Assembly: GCF_003852405.1 (NCBI RefSeq)
Contig: NZ_QAJM01000022.1
Span: 109,628-173,627 of the forward strand
Direction: 5' to 3'
Source of the DNA: Pseudomonas sp. KBW05
GTDB lineage: Bacteria > Pseudomonadota > Gammaproteobacteria > Pseudomonadales > Pseudomonadaceae
Length of the DNA stretch: 64,000 bases
Position 1 is the first letter of the stretch. The number at the start of each line of letters is the position of its first letter. Below the pieces are notes generated by a model that saw nothing but the letters and a program-made list of their open reading frames with translations, searched no databases and was not told the DNA's origin. A program made the translations under genes and the position numbers. Of the stretch, positions 45,778 through 56,322 are shown one piece after another.

Positions 45778-46010
45778 AAACACCAAAAATCTAATGTGGC
45801 AGGTGGTGAGAAAAAAGAAGGGTCTGAGGGCACGACCAGACTTTGCCTACCGACAATTCTGATGGCGATTTAAAGTCGGCTCAAAAGCCCAGTATTTAAG
45901 TGGCCAGCAAGCCCCATCTCTTTCATTCGCAGGATGTTTCCTAGACAATTCCACGGCCTTGTTTCCGTCGGATCGGTTAGCTAGTCTCGCCCAGTCATCG
46001 AATATTCGGT
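45778..46010. other. Gap after the cyclase gene
   Basis: This 233-base stretch holds no ORF, repeat or clear terminator that I can support. It leads into the structured leader at 46014 and must contain that transcript's promoter. Confidence 0.6.
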
Positions 46011-46013
46011 GAA

Positions 46014-46221
46014 CGGACGTGCAAGTCCGACGACGGCAATACGCAACAGCCTTAGCTCCCAACGCCTGCTTTTACTCCTGGCGTTAGTTCGTTATGGCAG
46101 CTGTACGCGGGAGATCTTCGGATCTACCGGACACCGTCACGGTCTTGCACACCCGCGTACTGCTGCCACCCTAAATTCGTGTGCAAGCGAACGGTTGCAG
46201 CTTCTTAACCTGACGGAGAAG
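46014..46221 (+). ncRNA. Candidate structured cis-regulatory RNA leader of the DUF6124 gene
   Basis: Several complementary segments precede the small gene. Hairpin A: CGGAC (46014-46018)/GTCCG (46025-46029), loop GTGCAA. Hairpin B: AACGCC (46061-46066)/GGCGTT (46080-46085). A long helix C pairs 46095-46111 with 46152-46168, 16 of 17 positions. It encloses AGATC-UUCG-GATCT (46112-46125), a C(UUCG)G tetraloop, and ACCG-UCA-CGGT (46133-46143), giving a three-way junction. CTTGCAC (46144-46150) in the junction is complementary to GTGCAAG at both 46019-46025 and 46181-46187, so two exclusive pseudoknots are possible. CTTCT (46201-46205) pairs AGAAG (46217-46221) across the Shine-Dalgarno GGAG (46215-46218). 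The helices are seen in the sequence; the folding and regulatory role are inferred. Confidence 0.6.
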
Positions 46222-46228
46222 TTACACC

Positions 46229-46525
46229 ATGATCAAAGTCACCCCCGATCCACCCCGCTTTCTCAGCGAAGACGCCCTACTCAACCGCCGAGCCATCGAC
46301 TACTACCTCAAAGCCTCCGCCCCGGATGCGCCAAGCTTCATCCTGAATGACAACCTGAGCTTCGAAGACGCCCTCGCCCATGCGGCGGATTTACTGCATT
46401 GCGCGGTGGAGACAGCGCACTCATCGGCAGAATCAATGAATGTGCAGCAGCGGGCAGTGATGCATTTGGTGGAGATGGCGAAGGTGGTCGTGGATCAGGC
46501 GCTGGACTGCACACAGTCTCGATGA
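46229..46525 (+). CDS. DUF6124/DUF3077-type small protein
   Basis: A 98-residue protein starting MIKVTPDPPRFLSEDALLNR with LLHCAVETAHSSAESMNVQQ, and VMHLVEMAKVVVDQALD at the C-terminus. This is the layout I associate with the Pseudomonas DUF3077/DUF6124 family: a small helical protein of unknown function, often in several copies per genome. The ribosome box GGAGAAG lies within a predicted hairpin of the structured leader. It has no partner gene on its strand. A REPIN follows. Confidence 0.8.
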   Translation: MIKVTPDPPRFLSEDALLNRRAIDYYLKASAPDAPSFILNDNLSFEDALAHAADLLHCAVETAHSSAESMNVQQRAVMHLVEMAKVVVDQALDCTQSR

Positions 46526-46541
46526 ACGACACATAACCCCT

Positions 46542-46629
46542 GTGGGAGCGGGCTTGCTCGCGAAGGCGGTGTGTCAGTCAATATATCCGGCGACTGATCC
46601 ACCGCTTTCGCGAGCAAGCCCGCTCCCAC
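46542..46629. repeat. REPIN
   Basis: Dominant-family mirror arms, with inner complementary segments GGCGGT/ACCGCT. It separates convergent genes. Confidence 0.92.
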
Positions 46630-46665
46630 ATTTGAATCTTCTGTGTGCTTGGAATTGTGGTGGGG

Positions 46666-55907: not shown

Positions 55908-56322
55908 GCTATTCCTCACTGCGGATTAGGGCCTATCCATGAGACTGGAAAAGCACGGCCCGGTTCTCGGACAGGTTATCAGTCACGAGAAACATTTTCG
56001 CAGGCAAAAGAAAAGGGGTGACCCGTCGGCCACCCCTTGAGAACTTCGTCCTGGCTCAACGCTTTTGACGTTGGCTCACCTCACGCCGTCTTGTGGACAG
56101 TGTGCAGCCTGGAGGCCGGCTCAACCCTGCTGGGGTGGCGGCCGCAGCGCACCTGATTGGGCGGGCTGCTGTGGACTGTTGTCCAGGCGGTGATTCTGTT
56201 GATAAAGATACCCGCCAGCGCCCGGCAGATGATTGCGAAGATTGCGTCAATAAACAGTGCTTGCGCAATTTTTAACCCTTCATAGATAATTCGCCGCAAT
56301 AGTTACGACAAAGGCCAACCCA
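55908..56322. other. 415-base divergent gap with minus-strand terminator and possible tiny ORF
   Basis: It holds the terminator at 56013-56038 and, on the minus strand, a possible 72-codon ORF (TTG 56299 to 56081) beginning with RRIIYEGLKIAQALFIDAIF. It has no ribosome box. Plus-strand TTGCGC and GATAAT elements 18 bases apart (about 56262-56291) look like a promoter of the Lrp gene. Confidence 0.5.
56013..56038 (-). terminator. Intrinsic terminator, minus strand
   Basis: AAGGGGTG/CACCCCTT hairpin; on the minus strand it is followed by TTCTTTTG. No confirmed minus-strand gene lies upstream, so a short transcript from about 56300 is implied. Confidence 0.75.

What the first reader, a model, noticed from the sequence alone, without database searches (positions are those of the whole stretch)
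46011..46228. Elaborate structured RNA leader upstream of a DUF6124-type gene
Within about 200 bases there is a 17-position helix (46095-46111 with 46152-46168, 16 pairs) closing a three-way junction. Inside it are a hairpin with a C(UUCG)G tetraloop (46112-46125) and a second hairpin (46133-46143). Two copies of GTGCAAG (46019-46025, 46181-46187) are each complementary to the single CTTGCAC at 46144-46150, so they could compete in two exclusive pseudoknots. The Shine-Dalgarno itself lies in a CTTCT/AGAAG hairpin. This looks like a cis-acting switch or a structured trans-acting RNA rather than an ordinary gap. I do not know of a described riboswitch with this form.
Basis: partly seen in the sequence, partly recalled or inferred. 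Interest (0 to 1): 0.85.

Follow-up and report, generated by a model that had tools for sequence, protein, structure and literature searches.

The report
Chromosomal C4 antisense RNA gene switch
The structured leader is a C4 antisense RNA, a type of RNA known from phage immunity, and it is one of many chromosomal copies in Pseudomonas, each of which seems to carry its own pairing code and to silence the small protein gene just behind it.

Summary
The leader is real but not an unknown riboswitch. Window 46090-46173 is a C4 antisense RNA (Rfam RF01695, 59 bits, cut-off 45), the kind of RNA that silences phage P1's antirepressor. Segment a (46144-46150) pairs with a1 upstream and a2 downstream.

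This unit is one of many. Four Pseudomonas genomes hold 145 C4 hits and 132 DUF6124/DUF3077 genes; 116 C4-gene pairs stand together. The helices covary strongly. The a/b codes differ between paralogues and match their own targets (z 21-35, n=144). In relatives of this very unit with the same a, b and b2 change together, 20 of 23 of them at the same chromosomal site.

Best explanation: each unit makes a processed antisense RNA that blocks translation of its own gene. Pairing is shown by sequence; processing and repression are inferred.

C4, and multi-copy C4-like RNAs in Acinetobacter, are in print; I found no description of this Pseudomonas family in the papers searchable here. New variant of a known kind. 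What DUF6124 does is unknown, but it is under purifying selection (dN/dS 0.09-0.25).

The parts
45920..45958 (+). Conserved stretch upstream of the promoter-like hexamers; a variant of the element shared among C4 units (putative operator)
   Evidence: Similar text at the same distance in L024 and in relatives of this unit; the commoner variant is found only before C4 units in three other genomes. The function is inferred.
45959..45987 (+). Promoter-like hexamers TTGTTT, 17 nt, TAGTCT
   Evidence: Sequence; such sites stand at about -61 and -37 from a1 in many of 140 units. The strict consensus scan found no promoter here.
46014..46029 (+). a1 hairpin: stem CGGAC/GTCCG with a1 (GTGCAAG, 46019-46025) in and beside the loop
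   Evidence: Fold; complementarity a:a1 7 nt; a1 of 6 nt or more found in 140 of 140 units.
46032..46036 (+). b1 (GACGG), second upstream site, complementary to loop b
   Evidence: 5-nt match, weak on its own; family-wide z 21.5, among relatives of this unit only z -2.4.
46090..46173 (+). C4 antisense RNA (closing stem 46095-46111/46152-46168; hairpin 46112-46125; stem 46126-46129/46140-46143)
   Evidence: RF01695, 59 bits; fold; covariation.
46130..46139 (+). Loop b (GACACCGUCA), anti-Shine-Dalgarno code
46144..46150 (+). Segment a (CUUGCAC)
46176..46191 (+). a2 hairpin: TTCG/CGAA stem presenting a2 (46179-46187)
   Evidence: Fold; 9-nt match to a.
46211..46218 (+). b2 (TGACGG, 46211-46216) overlapping the Shine-Dalgarno GGAG (46215-46218)
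   Evidence: compensated changes in relatives; b2 lies in the Shine-Dalgarno zone in 95 of 103 units.
46229..46525 (+). DUF6124/DUF3077 gene, 98 aa
   Evidence: Pfam E 1.3e-8 and 4.4e-8; dN/dS 0.09-0.25.

Best explanation
The leader is a self-contained C4 antisense unit. One promoter makes a transcript a1-b1-C4-a2-b2-gene. The C4 part is cut out as an RNA of about 80 nt (inferred from phage C4). Its single-stranded segment a and loop b pair with a2 and b2 of the same or another copy of the transcript; b2 covers the Shine-Dalgarno, so translation of the DUF6124 protein is blocked (inferred from P1/P7 C4). The a1-b1 copy upstream offers the same address and probably holds or titrates C4 before it acts (inferred). 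Shown here: family membership, covarying fold, complementary sites that change together, and one unit beside most genes of the family. Inferred: processing, repression, and relief by a signal that acts on the shared upstream element or on free C4.
For: Rfam match over the gathering score, also at the five other places of this genome with DNA similarity. Helix covariation: 19 of 22 pairs with double changes. Cognate complementarity above non-cognate for a:a2, b:b2, a:a1, b:b1 (7.0 v 3.8, 7.2 v 4.7, 7.0 v 4.5, 6.7 v 5.1 nt; z 34.6, 32.1, 31.9, 21.5; n=144). Duplex energies: own -23 to -26, foreign -14 to -15 kcal/mol; the target prefers its own C4 in 13/13, 27/35, 29/41 and 34/53 cases. In 24 sequences with constant a, b and b2 change together: CCGUCA/UGACGG, CUUGC/GCAAG, CUUUG/CAAAG, UUUUG/CAAAA, UUCCGC/GCGGA (z -5.9, 0 of 5000 permutations); 20 of the 23 relatives lie at the same RNase T site. 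b2 lies in the Shine-Dalgarno zone in 95 of 103 units and the GG at the known processing point is kept in 139 of 140. Gene association: 116 of 132; C4 and DUF6124 counts in 60 genomes correlate, Spearman 0.88. Some chromosomal C4s precede Bro-N genes, one of which matches phage anti-repressor families, the P1 arrangement.
Against: I found no expression or processing data for Pseudomonas. In the window unit b:b2 is only 6 nt and b:b1 only 5 nt, and 5-nt matches are common by chance. The permutations do not correct for relatedness. 29 of 145 C4 hits lack a detected DUF6124/DUF3077 gene and 16 of 132 genes lack a C4 in range. 39 of 142 targets are predicted to pair better with some other C4 of the genome. 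The strict promoter scan found nothing. The a1b1 model RF03163 is not reached in the window unit.
Confidence: 0.85

Rival explanations
1. Cis-only switch: a pairs with a1 or with a2 inside one transcript as exclusive pseudoknots, and no free C4 RNA acts.
For: All sites lie on one transcript and a can pair with only one of a1 and a2 at a time. The C4 3' strand is weakly complementary to the text after a2 (z -5.4, but only 0.85 kcal/mol better than non-cognate).
Against: The known C4 RNAs are processed RNAs that act on separate mRNA (PMC5320573 and PMC12197685, passages). The GG of the processing point is kept in 139 of 140 units.
Confidence: 0.1
2. Metabolite riboswitch.
For: Compact junction in a 5' leader next to a Shine-Dalgarno hairpin.
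Against: The helices are kept while loops and joints vary, the reverse of a ligand pocket, and the variable parts follow their targets. Rfam names it C4.
Confidence: 0.02
3. The chromosomal C4s are anti-phage RNAs aimed at phages or satellites that use C4.
For: Pseudomonas phages and viral contigs carry similar C4s. For 11, 14, 22 and 12 of 38 phage-type targets some chromosomal C4 of the four genomes pairs within 2 kcal/mol of the phage's own.
Against: The same is seen for targets of other chromosomes (4 of 41 up to 32 of 53), so there is no sign of aiming. Most C4s have their own gene as best partner.
Confidence: 0.05
4. Toxin-antitoxin-like unit: DUF6124 is harmful when made and C4 is its RNA antitoxin. 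This is a claim about the role and is compatible with the best explanation.
For: In P1 the C4-controlled region carries icd, which blocks cell division (PMC8201110, passages). DUF6124 is a small protein under purifying selection.
Against: No toxicity data; no match to a known toxin in Pfam, NCBIfam, PHROGs or PADLOC; no PDB fold match at E 0.001.
Confidence: 0.25

Closest known systems
C4 antisense RNA of phages P1 and P7 (Rfam RF01695)
   Same: Same fold, segment a and loop b, sites before and after the RNA (the former as in the c4-a1b1 motif), b2 on the ribosome binding site
   Different: Chromosomal; up to 55 hits per genome; the target is mostly a DUF6124/DUF3077 gene instead of icd/ant; both a and b differ between copies
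Group 1 C4-like sRNAs of Acinetobacter baumannii (PMC5320573, passages and abstract text seen)
   Same: Many C4 copies in one genome; reads there suggest C4-like processing
   Different: That paper leaves the targets open and reports variation in a'; here matching sites lie in the same unit, b varies strongly too, and the target gene family is named from sequence
c4-a1b1 motif (Rfam RF03163)
   Same: An a1 hairpin and b1 stand upstream of C4; three other loci reach the cut-off (L004, L006, L190)
   Different: The window unit does not reach the cut-off
Type I toxin-antitoxin modules (recalled)
   Same: An RNA thought to repress a small protein gene beside it
   Different: C4 is made from the same strand, upstream of the gene; toxicity is untested

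Membership tests
C4 antisense RNA (RF01695) | Covariance-model score over the gathering cut-off | tested here: met
   59 bits against 45
C4 antisense RNA (RF01695) | Three-stem fold supported by covariation | tested here: met
   Closing stem and first hairpin: 97.6% of cells paired, 0 of 500 shuffles as high. Second hairpin: only by fold of the window and by eye in relatives
C4 antisense RNA (RF01695) | a and b complementary to the downstream mRNA, b at the ribosome binding site | tested here: met
[quoted passage not shown]
   Only the GG is seen, in 139 of 140 units
C4 antisense RNA (RF01695) | Represses translation in trans | not testable with these tools
   needs reporters
C4 antisense RNA (RF01695) | Carried by a phage (origin of the family, not a formal criterion) | tested here: not met
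   Copies are spread over the single contigs of G010, G036 and G049; one DUF6124 query hit 1 of 50,697 phage records and 0 of 72,556 plasmids; prophage content of the genomes was not mapped
c4-a1b1 (RF03163) | Model score over the cut-off | tested here: not met
   No hit in the window, although a1 and b1 are present by sequence
Riboswitch | Conserved ligand-binding core | tested here: not met
   Loops and joints are the variable part; no ligand test was possible
Type I toxin-antitoxin | Toxic small protein | not testable with these tools
   No family or fold match

The most novel reading that the evidence does not exclude
The units form a chromosome-wide set of RNA-coded sensors: an incoming or induced transcript with a matching a-b address (of a phage, a satellite or another unit) soaks up the cognate C4 and so switches on the matching small protein, which acts on the invader or on the cell. 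The heteroimmunity logic of P1 and P7 would have been domesticated into tens of private channels in one genome.
Probability: 0.08. Interest if true: 0.9.

Novelty: new variant of a known kind. Interest (0 to 1): 0.6.

Why it matters
It gives a genus-wide family of unnamed small genes a testable mode of control. It offers tens of natural RNA pairing codes with matched targets in one genome, a rare resource for studying how antisense specificity evolves. It also makes a question left open for Acinetobacter testable, namely what multi-copy C4-like RNAs regulate: here, on sequence evidence, mostly the gene beside them.

Tried and rejected
Anti-phage aiming: tested, no better than control. Selection for privacy of codes within a genome: tested, pairwise cross-talk is 0.039 within and 0.039 between genomes, so no sign of it. 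A cis hairpin between the C4 3' strand and the text after a2: only weakly supported. Fold search with the DUF6124 model: no PDB match at E 0.001, so no function is claimed from structure. NCBIfam, PHROGs and PADLOC: nothing convincing for DUF6124. Riboswitch: rejected (see rivals). Papers on C4 in Pseudomonas or on DUF3077/DUF6124: searches gave no description of this family; the library lacks most subscription papers, and one search was too broad to add much.

Rows dropped: of 145 C4 hits, L150 (partial) was left out (n=144); L147 and L151 too (n=142); L122 and L142 too (n=140). Protein statistics use the 103 of 116 units with a clean start codon. The b statistics of relatives use 24 of 30 sequences, those with a = CTTGCAC. 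RNase T loci were fetched for the best 30 of 116 genomes, with 1.5 kb on each side. The viral C4 scan reported 100 stretches, of which 80 loci were given and used.

Full report
What is there. Window 46090-46173 matches Rfam RF01695, C4 antisense RNA, with 59 bits against a cut-off of 45 (E 7.7e-9). What completes the picture is loop b (46130-46139): its CCGUCA is complementary to UGACGG at 46211-46216, which overlaps the Shine-Dalgarno GGAG (46215-46218) of the gene at 46229.

The gene. It encodes 98 aa and matches DUF6124 (E 1.3e-8) and DUF3077 (E 4.4e-8). Between 7 orthologues (21 pairs) dN/dS is 0.09-0.25, so the protein is kept. AlphaFold gives three helices at modest confidence (pLDDT 77.8, pTM 0.50) and no PDB match at E 0.001.

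How common. In 60 genomes of the genus, 55 have a C4 match and 48 a DUF6124 match at E 0.001; counts reach 54 and 43 per genome and correlate (Spearman 0.88; 5 genomes with neither, 7 with C4 only, 0 with DUF6124 only). In one search at most 60 candidates per genome were scored, so C4 counts are lower bounds. In four genomes searched more deeply there are 145 C4 hits (13, 36, 41 and 55; 141 over the Rfam cut-off) and 132 DUF6124/DUF3077 genes; 116 pairs lie in the same direction within 500 nt. Of 80 named loci found by protein similarity, all Pseudomonas, 70 have a C4 on the same strand by a model built here from such sequences. In a phylum sample 6 of 398 genomes have DUF6124 over the cut-off, all of this genus. 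One DUF6124 query hit 1 of 50,697 phage records, at the edge of a tailocin- or prophage-like cluster, and 0 of 72,556 plasmids. A scan of viral contigs gave 12 relatives; in 10 of 12 the contig ends within 36 bases after the gene, which I read as chromosomal flank.

Covariation. On 58 dissimilar C4s, 97.6% of cells in 22 pairs form standard pairs (shuffles 84.4%), 19 pairs have double changes, and 174 cells are doubly changed (shuffles 41.6); no shuffle of 500 reached any measure, and sliding the partner by 1-3 columns drops pairing to 33-44%.

Antisense sites. For 144 units the mean longest complementarity is 7.0 nt (a:a2), 7.2 (b:b2), 7.0 (a:a1) and 6.7 (b:b1), against 3.8, 4.7, 4.5 and 5.1 for foreign targets; z 34.6, 32.1, 31.9 and 21.5 over 2000 permutations. 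This does not remove relatedness, and individual units often tie with some foreign target. With bars of 6 nt for a and 5 nt for b, 131 of 140 units have all four sites, 5 nt for b being a weak bar. Duplex energies within each genome favour the own pair by about 10 kcal/mol on average; the target prefers its own C4 in 103 of 142 cases, and 76 of 142 targets have no other C4 of the genome within 2 kcal/mol of their own. The relatives of the window unit are the cleaner test: 24 sequences with the same a carry several different b codes with matching b2 (z -5.9, 0 of 5000). 20 of the 23 relatives have the RNase T gene in the same place, so most are true orthologues. For b1 this test is weak (z -2.4, 49 of 5000).

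Evolution. Ten tandem pairs lie within 6 kb. In 8 both proteins are readable, 92-99% identical; all 8 differ in b and 7 in a. Still, cross-pairing within 2 kcal/mol of the own pair is predicted in 3 of these 8 (L017/L101, L050/L107, L087/L088). Of the other two pairs, L058/L079 share a and b completely (L079 lacks a clean start) and L081/L134 share a only. Among 83 within-genome pairs with at least 85% identity in the last 65 residues, 15 share the 8-nt a segment and 11 are predicted to cross-talk. Two orthologues with dN 0.013 (L169, L173) have different b codes. Cross-talk is as rare between as within genomes (0.039 each), so I do not claim selection for privacy.

Context. At the RNase T site beside the window unit, 12 of 29 relatives fetched have a C4: 6 like the window unit and 6 in the other orientation. 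Of the latter, 4 show a frame like the Bro-N protein of L102 (by eye; L189 is the same unit as L102), 1 a short frame, and 1 is cut by the locus end. The products of L016, L102 and L149 match Pfam Bro-N, and that of L102 matches phage anti-repressor families in PHROGs (best E 1.4e-11), which echoes P1. A 32-nt element, CCTACNNCTNCGCCAGAATCCGCCGGCTTGTG, occurs 60 times in three genomes with up to 3 mismatches, all 60 within 300 nt 5' of a C4, with 0 hits for the reversed control. The window unit has a different variant.

Phage relatives. Pseudomonas phages and IMG/VR contigs carry similar C4s. Of 84 distinct C4 units from viral contigs and four phage records, 36 precede DUF6124-like and 10 other chromosome-type frames (probably flank), 19 a frame of about 52 aa of a distinct kind, and 19 something else, sorted by simple motif rules. 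The scan word was the chromosomal consensus, so this sample is biased.

Literature. P1/P7 C4 blocks translation near the ribosome binding site of ant mRNA (PMC12197685, passages); Ant, Icd and C4 belong to the P1 immunity region (PMC8201110, passages). C4 is cut by RNase P, a' gives specificity and b' covers the ribosome binding site; A. baumannii has a large group of such RNAs with targets not known, and its authors note that Weinberg et al. predicted C4 in Pseudomonadales (PMC5320573, passages). RNase P processing of C4 is also named in PMC11143913 (one passage). Weinberg 2010 lists C4 for Proteobacteria and phages (PMC2864571, passages). DUF3077 appears in one paper of the library, in passing (PMC9630843, passages).

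Verdict. Membership in C4: met on the sequence and fold features tested here; processing and repression could not be tested. Working model: self-silencing antisense unit, 0.85. Role of the protein: open.

Noticed in passing
window 56015-56268, - strand: Strong match to Rfam RF00629, Pseudomonas sRNA P24 (252 bits).
   Followed up: no
window 46542-46630: Large inverted repeat (GTGGGAGCGGGCTTGCTCGCGAA...) just after the DUF6124 gene, of the kind called REP in Pseudomonas (label recalled); similar repeats stand in L002.
   Followed up: no
L016, L042, L102 (= L189), L149, L180, L187, L194: C4 units in front of Bro-N type frames (Pfam for L016, L102 and L149; by eye for the others); L102 and L180 begin with MIKVTPNPP like DUF6124 proteins.
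   Followed up: partly
genomes G010, G036, G049; for example upstream of C4 in L065: A 32-nt upstream element found only before C4 units (60 of 60 sites): a possible common operator.
   Followed up: partly
L028, L038, L040, L044, L048, L049, L054, L063, L068, L075, L117, L127, L140, L144-L146: C4 units before other small proteins of 87-106 aa; the five scanned (L028, L044, L049, L068, L127) have no Pfam match over the cut-off.
   Followed up: partly
viral contigs L294-L373 and phage stretch L290: Phage-type C4s often precede a frame of about 52 aa (M.ALNPSKIRALAHRRMALAALHANSSL...); two versions scanned, a viral and a chromosomal one (L011), have no Pfam or PHROG match.
   Followed up: partly
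L006 1384-1585 and 2469-2602: A C4 unit beside a tRNA gene with overlapping Rfam hits c4-a1b1 and isrK upstream of C4, and a radC RNA further on.
   Followed up: no
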